From positions 124,001 through 188,000 of the forward strand of contig NZ_NBXA01000001.1 of the NCBI RefSeq assembly GCF_003399625.1: a DNA stretch of 64,000 bases, given 5' to 3'. The notes under the pieces are model-generated. The model worked only from the letters and a program-made list of their open reading frames with translations, ran no database searches and was not told the origin of the DNA. The first letter of the stretch is position 1. The number at the start of each line of letters is the position of its first letter. This document shows positions 32,359 through 39,704 of this stretch, piece by piece. Source of the DNA: Subtercola boreus (GTDB lineage Bacteria > Actinomycetota > Actinomycetes > Actinomycetales > Microbacteriaceae). The translations under genes were made by a program, and so were the position numbers.

Positions 32359-33339
32359 ATGGATGCCCTGCTCGCCGATACGCGGCCCCTCACGACGACG
32401 TACGCGCCCGCGCGCCCGGTGAACCTCCGCCAGACGGTCGGTCCGCTGCTGCGGGGTGTTCACGAGCCGACGATGCGCCTCACTCCGAACGGGTTCTGGC
32501 GCATCATCCGCTCGCCTGAGGGAACCGCGACGCTGCACGCAGAGGCGCGTGCGGGCGGCCGGGTGGAGGCGACCGCCTGGGGCGCGGGTGCAGGGTGGGC
32601 TCTGGATGCTCTGCCCGGCCTGCTGGGCGACGGCGACGACTGGAGCGGGTTCGACCTGGAACGCATCCCGCCGCTGGCCGAGGTGCGGAGGCGGCATCCG
32701 GGCCTCTGGCTCACCTCGACGGCGCTCGTGTTCGAGTCGCTGGTGCCGAGCATCCTGGAGCAGAAGGTCACGACGATCGAGGCCCGTCGGGCGTGGCGTT
32801 ACCTCGTTGCGAAGTACGGCGAGATCCCGCCTGGCCCTGCGCCCGAGGGGATGCGGGTGCAGCCGAGCCCGCGGCAGTGGCAGCTCGTGCCGTCGTGGGA
32901 GTGGCACCGCGCAGGGGTGGGACCGAACCGGTCCCGTGCGGTGCTGGCGGCGGCCGCGGTCGCCGCGGGGCTCGACCGGCTCGCGCCTGCCGGCCCGCCC
33001 GCCGGCCCGCCCGCCGGCCCGGGTGGCACTCGAGCCGCGGGGTACGACGGTGTGCTCGAGAAACTCCAGACCGTGCACGGCATCGGCCCGTGGACGGCCG
33101 CCGAGACGAGCCAACGCTCCCACGGGCATCCTGACGCCGTGAGTGTCGGCGACTTCCATCTGGCCGCACACGTGGGCTGGGTGCTCATCGGCGAACCGGT
33201 GGACGACGAGGGGATGCTCGAGCTGCTGGAGCCCTGGCGCGGACACCGCCAGCGCCTGGTCCGTCTGATCCTCGCGAGCGGGGTGCCGAAGCCGAAGTTC
33301 GGGCCGCGCGCCACGATCCAGGATCACCGCTGGCACTGA
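32359..33339 (+). CDS. HhH-GPD DNA glycosylase (AlkA/3-methyladenine type)
   Basis: This 326-residue protein carries an AlkA-like N-terminal part and a helix-hairpin-helix plus Gly/Pro-Asp core (V-H-G-I-G-P-W-T-A-A-E-T, then the catalytic aspartate region V-S-V-G-D-F-H). It would excise alkylated bases. A Gly-Pro-Pro-Ala repeat (encoded around 32992-33025) sits in a loop before the HhH. TAGGGT lies 9 nt before the ATG. It stands alone between aroF and the PutA-like gene. Confidence 0.85.
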   Translation: MDALLADTRPLTTTYAPARPVNLRQTVGPLLRGVHEPTMRLTPNGFWRIIRSPEGTATLHAEARAGGRVEATAWGAGAGWALDALPGLLGDGDDWSGFDLERIPPLAEVRRRHPGLWLTSTALVFESLVPSILEQKVTTIEARRAWRYLVAKYGEIPPGPAPEGMRVQPSPRQWQLVPSWEWHRAGVGPNRSRAVLAAAAVAAGLDRLAPAGPPAGPPAGPGGTRAAGYDGVLEKLQTVHGIGPWTAAETSQRSHGHPDAVSVGDFHLAAHVGWVLIGEPVDDEGMLELLEPWRGHRQRLVRLILASGVPKPKFGPRATIQDHRWH

Positions 33340-33387: not shown

Positions 33388-36300
33388 ATGGTCGACCAGA
33401 AGTCCGATGATCGTGTGGCCGATGCGGCTCCGGATGCCGCGGACGACGACGTGGTGCGCGCGGACCAGGCCGGGGCGACCACCGTCGGCGACCAGGGCGA
33501 TTCGGGCGATTCGGGCGACCTCGCGGGCCTCGGCGCGGAGGCCGTGGTGCTGGTGCGCACCTGGTTGCACGAGGACGCGCCGCGTACCGGCGCCGCTTCG
33601 GGTGAGGCGTCCGGCAGAAGTGCCGATGCGGCTGGCAGGGCCCCCGACTCTCCGGCCGCCCGGCTCGTCGGCCTGCTCCGCGAACCCGACGGTCTCGCCT
33701 TCGCCGTCGAGTTCGTCGACGGTGTCGTCCGCCCCGACGACAACGCTGTGGCCGCAGGCAACCTCGAACGCCTCAGTTCCCGGGTACCCGAGTCGCTTCC
33801 GGCGCGCCTGCGGTCAGCCATCCGCGTGGGAAGCACCGTGGGCGAGGCGCTTCCGTGGGCTGTCGTTCCCCCGTCGGCGCGCCTGCTGCGCCGGATGGTC
33901 GCGCCCCTCATCGCCGACGCGACCCCGTCGAAGCTGGGCGAGACGATGGCGCGTCTCACCGCCGACGGTTCACGCGTGAACCTCGCCCCGGTGGGCGAGC
34001 CGGTGCTCGGCGAGGCCGGTGCCGCCCGGTGCCGGGCCGCAGTGAGCGCTCTTCTTGCGCGCGATGACGTGGACCACGTGCTGATGGCCCTGCCCTCGAT
34101 CGCGGACGGCCGCGCGCTCTGGGATTTCGACGAGACGGTCGAGCGGGTGGCGGAAGCTCTCGTCCCACTGTACGAACAGGCTCTGCCGAGGGAAGACCGC
34201 CGAACGGGGGCGGTCTTCCTCACCCTCGACTTCGAGGAGCCCCATCAGCTCGAGCTGGCGGCCGCGGTCTTCCAGAGCATCCTCTCCCGTGCCGAATTCC
34301 GTGGGCTCGAGGCCGGGATCACGCTCCCGGTCGGACTGCCCGGCGCGCTCACAGTGCTGGACCGACTGCAGCAGTGGGCGAGCGCGCGGGTCGAAGCGGG
34401 CGGCGCGGGCACCACGGTTCGGGTGGTGCAGAAGCATCCGAGCTCCCCAAGCGCCGGCGGCGCCGCCCTCGAGAGCCTGCTCGCCGCCGCGCTGACGGCA
34501 CAGGATTCGGATGCGGTGCGGATCGTCATCGCGCGCTGCAGCCTGTTCGAGACCGCCTTCGCGTGGCTGCTCGCCGAGCGACGGGGCGTGGCCGACCGGC
34601 TCGCTGTCGAGCTGGAGTCCGGCACATCCGCGAGGCTTCGTGCGGCGGTCCGCGGGAGTGTCGGCAACGTGCTGCTGCACGCACCCGTTGTACATCCACG
34701 CGAGTTCGCAGCTGTGACCGACTACCTCATCGACCGACTCGGCGAGGCCGCCGGCGACGGGAATCAGCTGGCGTCGGCATTCGATCCCGAAGTCGACCAG
34801 CACGTGTTCGTGAGGGAGCGCGACAGGTTCCTCGCGTCGCAGCGCAGTTCGGGGCCGGCGGGTTCGCGGGAGGATTCCGAGGGTGTCGCGGGCGCCGCTC
34901 ACCCCGATGGCTCTCTCCCGGCCGATCGGGAGCGAGCCCGCCGCATCCTGGATCGTGCGTCGCGCTCCCGTCTCGGCAGCGCGACCGACGCGGCGGCCAG
35001 GATCGTCGCCCCCTCCACTCTCGACGCGCTGGTCGAAAGGGCCGCGGCGGCAGGTGCGGCCTGGGGGGCACGGCCGGCCCTCGAGCGGGCAACCATGCTC
35101 CGACGTGCGGCGGAGGCGGTCGACGTCAACCGCGACCTGCTCGTCGAAGTGATGGTGAGCGAGACCGGCCTGATCTTCCAGGACGCCGAATCCGACGTGA
35201 GCCGCGCCGTGGAGCTCTCCGCCCACAGCGCCGATCTGGCCGAAGAACTCGGCGACGTGGACGGAGCCCGATTCGTTCCGTCTGCGCTCGTCGTGGTCGC
35301 ACCCTCCTGGAGCCACCCCGTCTCCGACCCGGCCGGCGGCGTGTTCGCGGCGTTGGGCGCGGGTGCTGCCGTGGTGCTGCAGCCGGCGGATGAGGCGGGC
35401 CGGTCATCCGCGCTCCTCTGCGAGGTGCTGTGGGAGGTGGGCATTCCCCGCGAGGTGCTGCTCCTGGTCGAGCTCGGCGTGCCGGAGCATTCCGTCGCCG
35501 GGCATTCGGACGACGCCGATCATCCGAGCACCACGGCCCTGCGCCGCCAGCTCTTCACCGACCCGCGCGTCGACCGCGTGCTCCTCACCGGTTCGTTCGA
35601 GACCGCGGAAGAGCTCAGGTCGTGGCGCCCCGACCTGCCGCTGATCGCCTCGACGGGCGGTCGAAATTCCCTCATCGTCACCCCGAGCGCCGACGTCGAT
35701 CTCGCCGTGACCGATGTCGTGGCCAGTGCGTTCTCCCACTCCGGCCAGCACCCCGGGGCGGCGCACCTTGTCATTCTCGTCGGTTCGGTCGCGAAGTCAG
35801 CCCGGTTCACGCGCCAGCTCGTCGATGCCGTGGCGTCGCTGAAGGTCGGGGAGGCGACGGCCCTCTCGAGCGGGATGGGTCCGATCATCCGCCCCGCCGA
35901 CGGTGGCCTGTTGGCTGCCCTCACGACGCTGGGCGACGACGAGCGCTGGCTCGTCGAACCTCGGAGACTCGATGAGGCGGGCCTGCTGTGGTCGCCCGGA
36001 CTGCGGGCGGGAGTGACGGCCGGCTCGGCATTTTCTCGTGCCGAAGACGCGGGCCCCGTGCTCGGCGTGACGCAGGTGGCGACCCTCGAGGAGGCCATCG
36101 CGCTGCAGAACAGCACGGCCTTCGGGTTGGCGGCGGGCATCCACTCCCTGGATCCGGCCGAGGTCGAGCGCTGGCTCGACGCCGTCGACGCCGGGAGTCT
36201 CTCGGTGAACCGACCGATCGCGGGGAGCCTCGGCGACCGGTGGCCCGCGCGGGGCTGGAAGCGGTCATCCGTCGGGCCGGGTGGAGCGATCGGCGGGCCG

Positions 36301-36957
36301 AACGCGCTGCTCGGCCTCGGACAGTGGGCGACCGAGGCGGGCGAGGAGAGCACCGATCTGGCGCTCGGCACCCTCGACCCGAAGGTGCGCGAGCTCATCG
36401 AAGCGGCGACGCCGGGACTCGACTGGCGGCAGTTCGACTTCGTGAGACGCGCGGCACTGAGCGATGAGGCGGCATGGAAGGGCGCGTTCGCGGCGGTCGA
36501 GCTTCCCGCCGCCGGGCGGAGGGTGTTGCGCTACCGGCCGGTTCCCGTCGTGATCAGGCTTTCCGAGGGAGAGCCGCTCGATGCGCTCGTACGGGTACTC
36601 GCCGCGGGAACCCGGGCACGGGCCTCCCTCGGGCTCAGTACGGCGCTGAAACTGCCGCGACCGCTCCGCGCGCTGCTGAAAGAACGGCGCGTGCGAGTGT
36701 TCGTCGAGAGCGATGAGACCTGGCTGGCGCGGGCAGCGAAGGTGGGCATCGGTTCGTCGCGAATCAGGATGATCGGGGGAGACCCGCGCGCGCTCGCCGA
36801 GGCGGTCGGCGGTTCGCCCGACGTGGCGATCCATGCGGGCGAGGCCACGCGGGCGGGGCGGATCGAGCTGCTGCCGTTCCTCGCGGAGCAGACGGTGAGC
36901 GTGGCGACGGTTCGCCGCGGCAGGCCGAGCCCGGTTGCGCACGTGCGGATCGCCTGA
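33388..36957 (+). CDS. PutA-like protein with degenerate proline dehydrogenase and aldehyde dehydrogenase sites
   Basis: This 1189-residue protein aligns by eye over its whole length with actinobacterial bifunctional PutA, which oxidises proline to glutamate. Key residues are replaced throughout. In the dehydrogenase half, the expected V-K-G-A-N reads V347-Q-K-H-P, the paired arginines that hold the proline carboxylate read D449-R450, and D-x-E-E-Y reads D-F-E-E-P. In the aldehyde dehydrogenase half, P-W-N-F-P reads S-W-S642-H-P, the general-base Glu (A-E-T-S-G-K-N) is Ser755, and the catalytic Cys (G-Q-K-C-S) is Pro789 (G-Q-H-P-G). The frame is intact, with normal codon bias, so it is not a decaying pseudogene. 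It likely folds but catalyses neither reaction; a binding or regulatory role is possible. Confidence 0.82.
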   Translation: MVDQKSDDRVADAAPDAADDDVVRADQAGATTVGDQGDSGDSGDLAGLGAEAVVLVRTWLHEDAPRTGAASGEASGRSADAAGRAPDSPAARLVGLLREPDGLAFAVEFVDGVVRPDDNAVAAGNLERLSSRVPESLPARLRSAIRVGSTVGEALPWAVVPPSARLLRRMVAPLIADATPSKLGETMARLTADGSRVNLAPVGEPVLGEAGAARCRAAVSALLARDDVDHVLMALPSIADGRALWDFDETVERVAEALVPLYEQALPREDRRTGAVFLTLDFEEPHQLELAAAVFQSILSRAEFRGLEAGITLPVGLPGALTVLDRLQQWASARVEAGGAGTTVRVVQKHPSSPSAGGAALESLLAAALTAQDSDAVRIVIARCSLFETAFAWLLAERRGVADRLAVELESGTSARLRAAVRGSVGNVLLHAPVVHPREFAAVTDYLIDRLGEAAGDGNQLASAFDPEVDQHVFVRERDRFLASQRSSGPAGSREDSEGVAGAAHPDGSLPADRERARRILDRASRSRLGSATDAAARIVAPSTLDALVERAAAAGAAWGARPALERATMLRRAAEAVDVNRDLLVEVMVSETGLIFQDAESDVSRAVELSAHSADLAEELGDVDGARFVPSALVVVAPSWSHPVSDPAGGVFAALGAGAAVVLQPADEAGRSSALLCEVLWEVGIPREVLLLVELGVPEHSVAGHSDDADHPSTTALRRQLFTDPRVDRVLLTGSFETAEELRSWRPDLPLIASTGGRNSLIVTPSADVDLAVTDVVASAFSHSGQHPGAAHLVILVGSVAKSARFTRQLVDAVASLKVGEATALSSGMGPIIRPADGGLLAALTTLGDDERWLVEPRRLDEAGLLWSPGLRAGVTAGSAFSRAEDAGPVLGVTQVATLEEAIALQNSTAFGLAAGIHSLDPAEVERWLDAVDAGSLSVNRPIAGSLGDRWPARGWKRSSVGPGGAIGGPNALLGLGQWATEAGEESTDLALGTLDPKVRELIEAATPGLDWRQFDFVRRAALSDEAAWKGAFAAVELPAAGRRVLRYRPVPVVIRLSEGEPLDALVRVLAAGTRARASLGLSTALKLPRPLRALLKERRVRVFVESDETWLARAAKVGIGSSRIRMIGGDPRALAEAVGGSPDVAIHAGEATRAGRIELLPFLAEQTVSVATVRRGRPSPVAHVRIA

Positions 36958-36995: not shown

Positions 36996-37424
36996 CTAGC
37001 GCTTGATGAGGTTCGACAGCACGATCGCGCTCCGCGTGTGATCGACGTTCGGCGCGATCCGAACCCGTTCAAGCGCCAGCTCCAGGCTCGGGATGTCGCG
37101 CGAACGCATGTGTACGATCGCGTCGGCACTGCCGGTCACGGTGCCTGCGTCGACGACCTCGGGCACGCCCGACAGAATGCGTTTCAGCTCCGCCGGCGCG
37201 ACCGTGCCCCGGCAGAACAGTTCGACGTAGGCCTCCGTCACCTTGCCGTCGAGCGAGGTGTCGAGCAGCACGGTGAAGCCCCGGATGATCCCGTCGGCAA
37301 TGAGCCGGTCGATCCGCCGTTTCACGGCCGACGCCGACAGCCCGATGACCTGGCCGATGTCCCCGTATCCCGTGCGGGCGTTGAGCTTCAGGAGGTCGAT
37401 GATACGAAAGTCGAGGTTGTCCAT
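36996..37424 (-). CDS. Lrp/AsnC family transcriptional regulator
   Basis: This 142-residue regulator has an N-terminal winged helix (DFRIIDLLKLNARTGYGDIG) and a C-terminal RAM ligand-binding domain. It diverges from the arginine-hydrolase/rocD operon and very probably controls it in response to arginine or ornithine. The same arrangement is known in mycobacteria, where an AsnC regulator adjoins a ddaH-like gene and rocD. TAAGCT lies 7 nt before the ATG. The 157-bp intergenic region contains AT-richer stretches (around 37440-37475) suited to Lrp binding. Confidence 0.9.
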   Translation of the reverse strand: MDNLDFRIIDLLKLNARTGYGDIGQVIGLSASAVKRRIDRLIADGIIRGFTVLLDTSLDGKVTEAYVELFCRGTVAPAELKRILSGVPEVVDAGTVTGSADAIVHMRSRDIPSLELALERVRIAPNVDHTRSAIVLSNLIKR

Positions 37425-37587: not shown

Positions 37588-38475
37588 GTGTCTACCTCGT
37601 TGCCCGTTTCCGATACCCTCCCAGGAATCTTTCCCTCAGAACCTCGCGTTCGAAAGGCGAAACCGCACACCTACCTGATGTGCCGCCCCGAGTTCTTCAC
37701 CGTCACCTACAAGATCAACCCGTGGATGGATCCGGCCCTCCCCACCGACACCGCCCTCGCGCTGGCCCAGTGGCAGACCCTCTACGACACCTTCATCGCT
37801 CTCGGCCACACCGTCGAACTCATCGACCAGATCGACGGCCTGCCCGACATGGTCTACTCGGCCAACGGTGGCTTCGTCGTCGACAATGTGGCCTACGGCG
37901 CGAGCTTCACGCACGTCGAGCGCCAGGCCGAGGGCCCCGCGTACATGCGCTGGTTCGCGGATGCCGGCTACGCCGTGCACGAGCCGCAGAACATCAACGA
38001 GGGCGAGGGCGACTTCATGCTCGTCGGCGACACGATCCTCGCCGGAACCGGGTTCCGGAGTGCTTCCGACTCGCACGCTGAGGTCGCCGCGCTCTTCAAC
38101 CGTGAGGTGGTGACCCTCAACCTCGTGAACCCGAACTTCTACCACCTCGACACCGCCATCGCTGTTCTGAACGAGTCGGCAGACGAAGCTCCGGATGCCG
38201 CCACCATCGCCTACCTGCCGAGCGCCTTCGACGCCCCGAGCCGCGCCGAACTCGAGCGCCGGTACCCCGACGCGATCCTCGTCAGCGAGACCGACGCCGC
38301 GGTGCTCGGCCTGAACTCGATCTCCGACGGCTACAACGTGGTGATCGCCTCGCGTGCCACCGGCTTCGAGGCGCAACTGCGGGAGCGCGGCTACAACCCG
38401 ATCGGCGTCGACCTCAGCGAGCTGCTGCTCGGCGGCGGCGGGGTCAAGTGCTGCACGCTGGAGCTCCGCCGATGA
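37588..38475 (+). CDS. Guanidine-family amidinohydrolase (arginine dihydrolase or dimethylargininase)
   Basis: This 295-residue enzyme belongs to the pentein guanidine-modifying superfamily: the N-terminal M-C-R-P-E-F-F, the catalytic histidine (Y-H-L-D) and the C-terminal nucleophile in G-G-V-K-C-C-T-L-E. It is usually annotated ddaH. However, the motif D-M-V-Y-S-A-N-G-G has Asn where deiminases have Asp, a feature reported to mark ArgZ-type arginine dihydrolases, which form ornithine directly. The next gene is ornithine aminotransferase, so ornithine as product makes better metabolic sense than citrulline. The GTG at 37588 has GAAGGA 5 nt upstream; an ATG at 37582 is the alternative. It overlaps rocD (ATGA). 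Confidence 0.82.
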   Translation: MSTSLPVSDTLPGIFPSEPRVRKAKPHTYLMCRPEFFTVTYKINPWMDPALPTDTALALAQWQTLYDTFIALGHTVELIDQIDGLPDMVYSANGGFVVDNVAYGASFTHVERQAEGPAYMRWFADAGYAVHEPQNINEGEGDFMLVGDTILAGTGFRSASDSHAEVAALFNREVVTLNLVNPNFYHLDTAIAVLNESADEAPDAATIAYLPSAFDAPSRAELERRYPDAILVSETDAAVLGLNSISDGYNVVIASRATGFEAQLRERGYNPIGVDLSELLLGGGGVKCCTLELRR

Positions 38476-39704
38476 TCTCCGTCGACTCCGCCACCCTCAC
38501 CGACCGGGCCATCGCCCGCGAGGAGGAGCACGCCGCGCACAACTACCACCCGCTGCCGATCGTCGTCGAATCCGGTGACGGGGCGTGGGTGACCGCCGTC
38601 GACGGCCGTCGCTACCTCGACTGTCTCGCCGCCTACTCCGCGGTGAACTTCGGGCATTCGAACCCCGTTCTGCTGGATGCCGCACGCGCGCAACTCGGCC
38701 GCATCACGCTCACGTCGCGCGCCTTCCACAACGATCAGCTCGGCCCGTTCGTCGAGGCGCTCGCCGCGCTTGCGGGCAAGGAGATGGTGCTGCCGATGAA
38801 CACCGGCGCCGAAGCCGTGGAGTCGGGAATCAAGGTTGCACGCGCCTGGGGGTACCGGGTCAAAGGTGTTGCCGACGGAATGGCGAACATCGTCGTGGCT
38901 GACGGCAACTTCCACGGTCGCACGATCTCGATCGTCAGCTTCTCCGACGACGCCTCAGCGCGTGATGGGTTCGGGCCGTTCACACCCGGGTTCCGCTCGG
39001 TGCCGTACGGTGATCCGGCGGCGATCGAGGCTGCCATCGACGAGAACACTGTAGCCGTGCTGCTCGAGCCGATCCAGGGCGAGGCCGGCATCATCGTTCC
39101 ACCCGCCAGCTATCTTCCCGCCGTGCGAGACATCTGCACTTCCCACAACGTGCTGATGATCGCGGATGAGATCCAGTCCGGACTCGGCCGCACCGGCACG
39201 ACGTTCGCCTGCGACCGGGTCGGCGTCGTTCCCGACCTCTACCTGCTCGGCAAAGCGCTCGGCGGCGGCATCGTTCCCGTCTCGGCCGTGGTCGGCAACG
39301 CCGACATCCTGGGCGTGCTCCGCCCCGGCGAACACGGCTCGACGTTCGGCGGCAATCCGCTCGCCGCCGCGGTCGGCAGTGCTGTTGTGGCGATGCTCGC
39401 CACCGGCGAGTACCAGCGGCTCGCGGATGCCCGGGGCTCCCTCCTGGCGGCGCGCCTCGAGGCGCTCCTCGGCCACGGTGTCCTCGCCGTGCGCACCGCA
39501 GGGCTCTGGGCCGGGATCGACATCGACCCGGCGCTCGCCACCGGCCGCGAGGTCTGCGAGCGGCTGATGGAACGCGGCGTTCTCGCGAAGGACACGCACG
39601 GTTCGACGATCCGCCTGGCCCCTCCGCTGGTCGTCTCGGAGGCCGATCTCGACTGGGCGGTCGACCAGCTCGCGGCGGTGCTGCAGGAACTCGGCGCGGC
39701 GTAG
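38472..39704 (+). CDS. rocD: Ornithine aminotransferase
   Basis: This 410-residue PLP enzyme converts ornithine and 2-oxoglutarate to glutamate-5-semialdehyde and glutamate. Motifs: T-G-A-E-A-V-E, the A-D-E-I-Q-S-G-L-G-R PLP-binding aspartate, and the Schiff-base lysine in L-L-G-K-A-L-G-G-G. It is cotranslated with the hydrolase (ATGA overlap). Together they would turn arginine into glutamate semialdehyde/P5C, the intermediate that a working PutA would oxidise; the adjacent PutA homologue seems inactive, so P5C must be handled by a gene elsewhere. Confidence 0.94.
   Translation: MISVDSATLTDRAIAREEEHAAHNYHPLPIVVESGDGAWVTAVDGRRYLDCLAAYSAVNFGHSNPVLLDAARAQLGRITLTSRAFHNDQLGPFVEALAALAGKEMVLPMNTGAEAVESGIKVARAWGYRVKGVADGMANIVVADGNFHGRTISIVSFSDDASARDGFGPFTPGFRSVPYGDPAAIEAAIDENTVAVLLEPIQGEAGIIVPPASYLPAVRDICTSHNVLMIADEIQSGLGRTGTTFACDRVGVVPDLYLLGKALGGGIVPVSAVVGNADILGVLRPGEHGSTFGGNPLAAAVGSAVVAMLATGEYQRLADARGSLLAARLEALLGHGVLAVRTAGLWAGIDIDPALATGREVCERLMERGVLAKDTHGSTIRLAPPLVVSEADLDWAVDQLAAVLQELGAA

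What the first reader, a model, noticed from the sequence alone, without database searches (positions are those of the whole stretch)
33388..36957. Full-length PutA homologue that has lost catalytic residues in both domains
The sequence shows an intact, normally biased 1189-codon gene whose order of blocks follows actinobacterial PutA. The proline-binding arginine pair, the FAD-side V-K-G-A motif, the aldehyde dehydrogenase Cys (now Pro789), Glu (now Ser755) and oxyanion Asn (now Ser642) are all changed. Established knowledge of both families says these residues are needed for catalysis. Keeping length and frame while losing both sites suggests selection for a non-enzymatic role such as sensing, scaffolding or competition with the active PutA. 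Its neighbour is an AsnC-controlled arginine-to-P5C route.
Basis: partly seen in the sequence, partly recalled or inferred. Interest (0 to 1): 0.78.

Follow-up and report, generated by a model that had tools for sequence, protein, structure and literature searches.

The report
Dead proline enzyme kept by selection
This gene makes a full-length relative of the proline-burning enzyme PutA in which both active sites are gone, yet evolution still preserves the protein, and similar losses happened separately in related bacteria, mostly at the same chromosomal spot, which points to an unknown non-enzymatic job.

Summary
In detail: window:33388-36957 (+) is an open 1189-aa PutA homologue lacking catalytic residues in both domains (equivalents of SmPutA Lys265, Tyr473, Arg488, Asn707, Phe708, Glu810, Cys844). 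One correction: Arg489 is kept (R450). The genome, Subtercola by its relatives, holds a second, complete PutA1. The window gene is PutA2, found in 12 of 12 Subtercola genomes, intact at the inspected sites in six and dead in one six-species clade.

Simple decay does not explain it. Most sites were lost before the window and its nearest relative split, yet dN/dS since is 0.226 (neutral simulations 0.59-1.09). All three parts are constrained, the C-terminal domain most; in most intact pairs compared that domain evolves faster than the catalytic parts.

Degraded copies with open frames arose separately in two other Microbacteriaceae genera (9 of 9 and 4 of 9 genomes examined), mostly at the same locus and beside a high-scoring second PutA; in one genus the closest pairs have dN/dS 0.026-0.038.

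Best reading: a recurrent PutA pseudoenzyme, probably a scaffold or partner subunit working through its C-terminal domain. Against: at least two of six Subtercola dead copies look broken; function unknown; both structure predictions failed.

The parts
33388..36957 (+). PutA2 pseudoenzyme gene, 1189 aa
   Evidence: open frame; Pfam Aldedh and Pro_dh; orthologue in 12 of 12 Subtercola genomes
33640..34887 (+). degenerate proline-dehydrogenase part (residues 85-500): A234, G316, Q348, C384, H431, D449, G452; R450 and E204 kept
   Evidence: dN/dS 0.275 to G003
34888..36342 (+). degenerate aldehyde-dehydrogenase part (residues 501-985): S642, H643, Q665, S755, P789, A888
   Evidence: dN/dS 0.208 to G003
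36343..36954 (+). C-terminal domain (residues 986-1189), the slowest part in the dead clade; contains TALKLPRPLRALLKERRVRVFVE
   Evidence: dN/dS 0.107 to G003; profile match to PutA 5ux5
32359..33339 (+). upstream neighbour, HhH-GPD-like DNA glycosylase (name recalled from its motif; no Pfam match at 1e-5)
   Evidence: found beside PutA2 in the 11 other Subtercola genomes
36996..37424 (-). Lrp/AsnC-family regulator, convergent with the PutA2 gene
   Evidence: Pfam HTH_AsnC-type and AsnC_trans_reg; 97-100% identical in 11 of 11 other Subtercola genomes
37600..38475 (+). dimethylargininase/arginine-deiminase family protein (exact start not determined)
   Evidence: Pfam DDAH_eukar and ADI
38448..39704 (+). 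class-III aminotransferase, likely ornithine aminotransferase (P5C-forming; that name is inferred)
   Evidence: Pfam Aminotran_3

Best explanation
The gene encodes a PutA pseudoenzyme. A catalytically complete second PutA (PutA2), sitting beside an arginine-to-P5C gene set, lost its active-site residues in a six-species Subtercola clade while a complete PutA1 elsewhere covered the chemistry (shown by residues and tree, not by assay). The dead protein has since stayed under purifying selection in all three parts, strongest in the C-terminal domain (shown for the window and its nearest relative). Similar changes occurred separately in two other Microbacteriaceae genera, mostly at the same locus (shown). 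I infer that the locus copy had a second, non-catalytic role and kept only that: most likely a scaffold or partner subunit that docks through the C-terminal domain to the arginine/proline catabolic machinery (PutA1 or the P5C-forming aminotransferase). The role and the partner are inference.
For: (1) The window and G003 share most of the lost sites, so the loss predates their split; dN/dS since is 0.226 (LR 166 against 1); PRODH part 0.275 (LR 47), ALDH part 0.208 (LR 75), C-terminal domain 0.107 (LR 47). Neutral simulation through the same estimator (12 estimates per setting) gives 0.59-1.08 for the full path and 0.74-1.09 for one lineage; simulated identity over the full path is 58-66%, observed 86.5%. 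(2) C-terminal to catalytic distance ratio: 15 of 15 dead Subtercola pairs 0.32-0.61; 10 of 10 pairs of five intact PutA2 copies 1.29-1.71; 8 PutA1 pairs examined 1.86-4.24. (3) Genus g35: 9 of 9 genomes hold a high-scoring PutA plus a degraded one with a stop-to-stop frame of 1210-1317 aa; four close pairs of degraded copies have dN/dS 0.026-0.038 against 0.018-0.020 for the intact copies of the same genomes; a more distant pair has 0.078 at dS 2.6. (4) Three separate dead clades in a tree of 86 sequences, each beside intact relatives. (5) 31 columns at least 98% conserved in 62 intact PutAs are lost in at least 75% of each dead clade, among them K234, N642, F643 and C789. (6) A second high-scoring Pro_dh in 6 of 6 dead Subtercola genomes, 9 of 9 in g35 and 4 of 4 in g31; 17 of 17 genomes with one match row have an intact copy, one of them with a single Glu-to-Asp.
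Against: Constraint in Subtercola is about four times weaker than in PutA1 (0.226 against 0.055). G002 has an in-frame stop; G003 ends inside the gene at two contig ends that look like an insertion element; G007 is split between contigs with about 70 residues missing. So some strains may do without the protein. In g35 the domain ratio is less extreme (median 0.76, range 0.50-1.25, 36 pairs), and five g31 locus copies with most or all sites intact also give low ratios (median 0.71, range 0.57-1.51, 10 pairs), so a slow C-terminal domain is not special to dead copies; one other intact pair also shows no faster C-terminal domain (L074/L075, dN 0.011 against 0.012 in ALDH). Site loss is incomplete: in the 13 degraded copies of g35 and g31 both arginines of the pair are kept in 8, the Glu810 equivalent in 5 and the Cys in 1, so some ligand binding there is not excluded. 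No expression, partner or structure evidence; both AlphaFold models are poor.
Confidence: 0.72

Rival explanations
1. A redundant second PutA that is simply decaying. The frame is still open because stops are rare at high G+C and the loss is recent.
For: Faster evolution than PutA1, different replacements in most lineages, G002 and G003 copies that look broken, an intact PutA1 as backup.
Against: dN/dS 0.226 after loss of the sites, against 0.59-1.09 in neutral simulation; open frames in both the window and G001, which are far apart (dS about 2.5, near saturation); C-terminal domain about as slow as in PutA1 of the same species; degraded g35 copies at dN/dS 0.026-0.038 with 9 of 9 frames open.
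Confidence: 0.17
2. Only the C-terminal domain is needed (perhaps made on its own) and the rest is passive.
For: The C-terminal domain is the slowest part in all 15 dead Subtercola pairs and stays readable downstream of the breaks in G002 and G003.
Against: The PRODH and ALDH parts are themselves constrained (LR 47 and 75); in three close g35 pairs they are strongly constrained (dN/dS 0.019-0.053).
Confidence: 0.08
3. A remodelled enzyme with a new activity in one of the two barrels.
For: Long branches followed by tight constraint in g35 would fit a new activity there; 8 columns conserved in intact PutAs are fixed for a new residue in the four g31 dead copies.
Against: In Subtercola the nucleophile, oxyanion Asn and substrate Lys are replaced by different residues in different lineages; among columns at least 95% conserved in intact PutAs only 1 in Subtercola and none in g35 is fixed for one new residue.
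Confidence: 0.03

Closest known systems
Bifunctional PutA with a C-terminal domain (PDB 5ux5; the labels class 3B and Corynebacterium freiburgense are recalled)
   Same: Order of parts and alignment over residues 87-1064; the C-terminal profile also matches it.
   Different: Catalytic residues of both active sites are lost; the C-terminal domain is the slowest part instead of the fastest.
Trifunctional PutA with a DNA-binding domain (start of the abstract of PMC5293562 in the listing) and PutA as a regulator in Ralstonia solanacearum (PMC9132996, start of the abstract in the listing)
   Same: A precedent for a PutA with a non-enzymatic job.
   Different: No DNA-binding Pfam domain was found here, and the catalytic residues are lost.
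Bacterial pseudoenzyme paralogues, for example the pseudokinase version of ChrS in Corynebacterium glutamicum (PMC9491836, listing only)
   Same: An inactive version of a known enzyme family with a biological effect.
   Different: Here two catalytic domains in one chain are dead, and degraded copies arose at least three times, mostly at one locus.

Membership tests
PutA (bifunctional proline utilization A) | PRODH and ALDH domains in one chain in that order | tested here: met
   Pfam Pro_dh 185-347 and Aldedh 543-964; alignment to 5ux5; PutA2 clade nested among PutAs
PutA (bifunctional proline utilization A) | PRODH substrate residues (K265, Y473, R488, R489 of SmPutA) | tested here: not met
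   A234, H431, D449, R450: three of four changed
PutA (bifunctional proline utilization A) | ALDH catalytic residues (N707, E810, C844 of SmPutA) | tested here: not met
   S642, S755, P789
PutA (bifunctional proline utilization A) | proline and P5C dehydrogenase activity | not testable with these tools
   needs an enzyme assay
Pseudoenzyme | catalytic residues absent, with homologues that have them | tested here: met
Pseudoenzyme | protein kept by selection after the loss | tested here: met
   dN/dS 0.226 with neutral control; closest pairs of another genus 0.026-0.038
Pseudoenzyme | a defined non-catalytic function | not testable with these tools
   needs an experiment
Pseudogene | broken frame or neutral evolution | tested here: not met
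   open frame in the window and dN/dS 0.226; but a stop in G002 and contig ends inside the gene in G003
Trifunctional PutA | N-terminal ribbon-helix-helix DNA-binding domain | tested here: not met
   no such Pfam domain listed up to E-value 1

The most novel reading that the evidence does not exclude
The PutA at the arginine locus of Microbacteriaceae has an undescribed non-catalytic function, carried mainly by its C-terminal domain, that predates the loss of catalysis. Whenever a second PutA takes over the chemistry, the locus copy is free to become a pure scaffold or regulatory subunit of arginine-to-glutamate catabolism, and this has happened at least three times.
Probability: 0.4. Interest if true: 0.75.

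Novelty: new variant of a known kind. Interest (0 to 1): 0.6.

Why it matters
PutA is a model for substrate channelling between two active sites. A lineage that repeatedly removes these sites while keeping the chain under selection says that PutA, or its C-terminal domain, does something besides catalysis, and gives a natural separation-of-function set to find out what. It also warns that genes that score as PutA in these genera can be catalytically dead, which matters for models of proline and arginine metabolism.

Tried and rejected
Structure: AlphaFold of the full protein (4 sequences, pLDDT 42.2) and of the C-terminal domain alone (8 sequences, pLDDT 41.5) are too poor to read; no fold search was run. 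Family-wide Pro_dh scan of 398 genomes: the listing is cut to the best scores, so it could not be used to count degraded copies; 43 genomes, chosen mostly because they had two matches, were scanned instead, so its shares are not shares of the family. Constraint at RNA level in the 3' end: rejected, because dS there is as high as elsewhere (0.297 against 0.301 and 0.333) and only dN is low. Pairwise dN/dS beyond dS of about 2 is saturated; those rows are rough signs only.

Literature: no report of a dead PutA paralogue turned up in searches of the held library: PutA terms; pseudoenzyme terms; Subtercola; a guess at the name of genus g35, nothing useful. PMC12398946: passages seen. PMC5786444: searched for six terms, none found. 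PMC9287328: three passages, none on PutA. A paper on the class 3B PutA was asked for by DOI and is not held; it is recalled only.

Rows left out: G009 from the intact group (its C-terminal domain lies on another contig); L081 from the trees (same gene as PutA1 of G000); five g31 locus copies from the intact set. Sites of the second PutA were inspected in 7 of 9 g35 genomes and in none of the four g31 dead genomes. The 44 outside PutAs are best matches plus chosen second copies, not a random sample.
Full report

Which residues are lost. Aligned to PutA1, with SmPutA numbers from PMC12398946 (passages), the window has A234 for K265, H431 for Y473, D449 for R488, S642 for N707, H643 for F708, S755 for E810 and P789 for C844, plus Q348 in VKGAN and G316 in LQAY. 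I placed the SmPutA numbers on the motifs by eye; the motif around K265 and the Arg pair is supported by alignments to PutAs of known structure.

Not unique to the window, and not ancestral. All 12 Subtercola genomes have PutA2, in the order glycosylase, PutA2, AsnC on the other strand, DDAH-like, aminotransferase (in G003, G007 and G009 the two sides lie on different contigs). Six PutA2 copies keep all 15 inspected sites (G004, G005, G006, G008, G009, G010); six have lost many (the window, G001, G002, G003, G007, G011). The dead six form one clade with support 1.000. Replacements differ between lineages: in the order window, G003, G001, G002, G007, G011 the Cys position reads P, P, R, S, A, R and the Asn position S, S, P, R, D, Q; the Glu810 equivalent is kept in G007 and G011, and G011 also keeps the VKGAN Lys and Y473. 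Pro_dh bit scores fall from 208-216 in the six intact copies to 129 (G011), 79 (G007), 45 (G001) and 36 (G002) with neighbours in the frame counted, 38 (G003) and 33 (window).

Broken copies. G002 has an in-frame TAA. G003, the nearest relative, is cut inside the gene at two contig ends whose terminal sequences mirror each other, as an insertion element would leave (adjacency of the contigs and the element family were not tested). G007 is split between two contigs at a Pro/Ala/Thr-rich stretch with about 70 residues missing; I cannot tell whether its frame is whole. The window, G001 and G011 have open frames.

Selection test. The window and G003 carry the same residue at most lost sites, so the loss is older than their split. 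Since then dN/dS is 0.226 over 1185 codons (dS 0.309, LR 166 against 1), with 0.275, 0.208 and 0.107 for the PRODH part, ALDH part and C-terminal domain; PutA1 of the same pair has 0.055. Neutral simulation from the window's codons with a fourfold-site spectrum gives estimates of 0.76-1.08 over the full path and 58% identity; a flat spectrum gives 0.59-0.82 and 66%; observed identity is 86.5% (12 estimates per setting). Stops alone are a weaker argument: 3.4 expected on average over the full path in the GC-biased setting, none in 2% of runs (7.5% for one lineage); 12.5 in the flat setting. On either side of the G003 break each piece reads in one frame.

Where the constraint sits. Over all 15 pairs of the six dead Subtercola copies the C-terminal domain evolves at 0.32-0.61 of the rate of the catalytic parts; over all 10 pairs of five intact PutA2 copies at 1.29-1.71; over 8 PutA1 pairs at 1.86-4.24. 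Its distance in dead copies is similar to that of PutA1 in the same species (window-G003 0.05 against 0.078; window-G001 0.22 against 0.28; window-G002 0.33 against 0.27; window-G007 0.36 against 0.26; window-G011 0.38 against 0.64). The stretch TALKLPRPLRALLKERRVRVFVE lies in it and is nearly the same in the Subtercola PutA2 rows that reach it; two catalytically intact sister sequences have close forms, so it predates the loss.

The same thing elsewhere. Of 44 PutAs from other Microbacteriaceae genomes three were changed at several of 15 sites (L094, L103, L099). A Pro_dh scan of 43 chosen genomes of 10 genera showed that in unnamed genus g35 9 of 9 genomes hold one PutA at 204-209 bits and one at 61-136 bits with a stop-to-stop frame of 1210-1317 aa (G360 also has a separate short Pro_dh protein); in genus g31 4 of 9 genomes hold one at 61-136 bits with frames of 1188-1452 aa. 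Of these 13 degraded copies 13 have lost the K265 equivalent, 13 the N707 equivalent and 12 the Cys (G045 keeps it); both arginines of the pair are kept in 8 and the E810 equivalent in 5. Neighbours: 9 of 9 g35 copies have the glycosylase, AsnC and DDAH; of the four g31 copies two have all three, one shows only the glycosylase and one shows none in the stretch fetched. Four close pairs of degraded g35 copies have dN/dS 0.031, 0.026, 0.035 and 0.038, against 0.018-0.020 for the intact copies of the same genomes; a more distant pair has 0.078. The tree of 86 sequences puts the three dead groups in three places (supports 1.000, 1.000, 0.986), each beside intact relatives. The domain ratio is 0.50-1.25 (median 0.76, 36 pairs) for degraded g35 copies, 1.38-4.56 (median 2.37, 21 pairs) for seven intact g35 copies, and 0.60-0.76 (6 pairs) for degraded g31 copies; five g31 locus copies with most or all sites intact give 0.57-1.51 (median 0.71, 10 pairs). 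The last figure counts against a link between a slow C-terminal domain and loss of catalysis, and fits the idea that the constraint on this domain is older than the loss.

Convergence. Of columns at least 98% conserved in 62 intact PutAs, 31 are lost in at least 75% of each dead clade. Four of them (K234, N642, F643, C789) match residues named as ligand-contact or catalytic in PMC12398946; others such as E452, S757, K759, K788, F888 and F954 lie in the same motifs, and their role is recalled, not tested. Asn279 became Thr in 6 of 6 Subtercola, 4 of 4 g31 and 2 of 9 g35 dead copies. Of columns at least 95% conserved in intact PutAs, every Subtercola dead copy keeps 61 of 182 in the PRODH part, 64 of 176 in the ALDH part and 14 of 27 in the C-terminal domain.

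Backup copies. A second high-scoring Pro_dh is present in 6 of 6 (Subtercola), 9 of 9 (g35) and 4 of 4 (g31) dead genomes. Of the Subtercola genomes with an intact PutA2, G006 and G009 showed no PutA1 (G009 is 86% complete), so PutA2 is probably their working PutA; G006 also has a short separate Pro_dh protein. All 17 genomes with a single match row have intact sites, one with a Glu-to-Asp; 16 of the 17 also show a single Pro_dh match, and G044 shows two.

Interpretation. In the genomes examined catalysis is lost only where another PutA is present, the loss happened at least three times and mostly at the arginine locus, and the dead chains tested remain under selection. I therefore favour a non-catalytic role that was there before. 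Because most ligand-contact residues are gone in the window protein, sensing through the old sites is unlikely there; because the C-terminal domain is the slowest part, docking through it is my best guess. That step is inference, and the partner is unknown. In Subtercola the constraint is milder and at least two of six copies look broken, so in this genus the role may be dispensable or on its way out.

Noticed in passing
window:36996-37424 (-): The AsnC/Lrp regulator is 97-100% identical in protein in 11 of 11 other Subtercola genomes, more conserved than most of its neighbours.
   Followed up: no
L035 9540-9747 and L036 1-120: Contig ends inside the G003 PutA2 gene carry mirrored terminal sequences, as an insertion element would; an ATG close to the right end opens a 241-aa frame holding the C-terminal domain.
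   Followed up: partly
L036 about 830-2830: In G003 about 2 kb of extra DNA lies between PutA2 and AsnC, where the window has 38 bases.
   Followed up: no
L040 9840-9931 and L041 6240-6319: G007 PutA2 is split at a Pro/Ala/Thr-rich low-complexity stretch near the catalytic-Cys region.
   Followed up: partly
L124, L099 (genus g31: G041, G114): Locus PutAs with two or three of 13 sites changed (for example Cys to Arg in G114) and the rest intact, perhaps early steps of the same loss.
   Followed up: partly
G006:C5:147123-147842: A separate short Pro_dh protein (frame 335 aa) in S. lobariae, which shows no PutA1 match.
   Followed up: no
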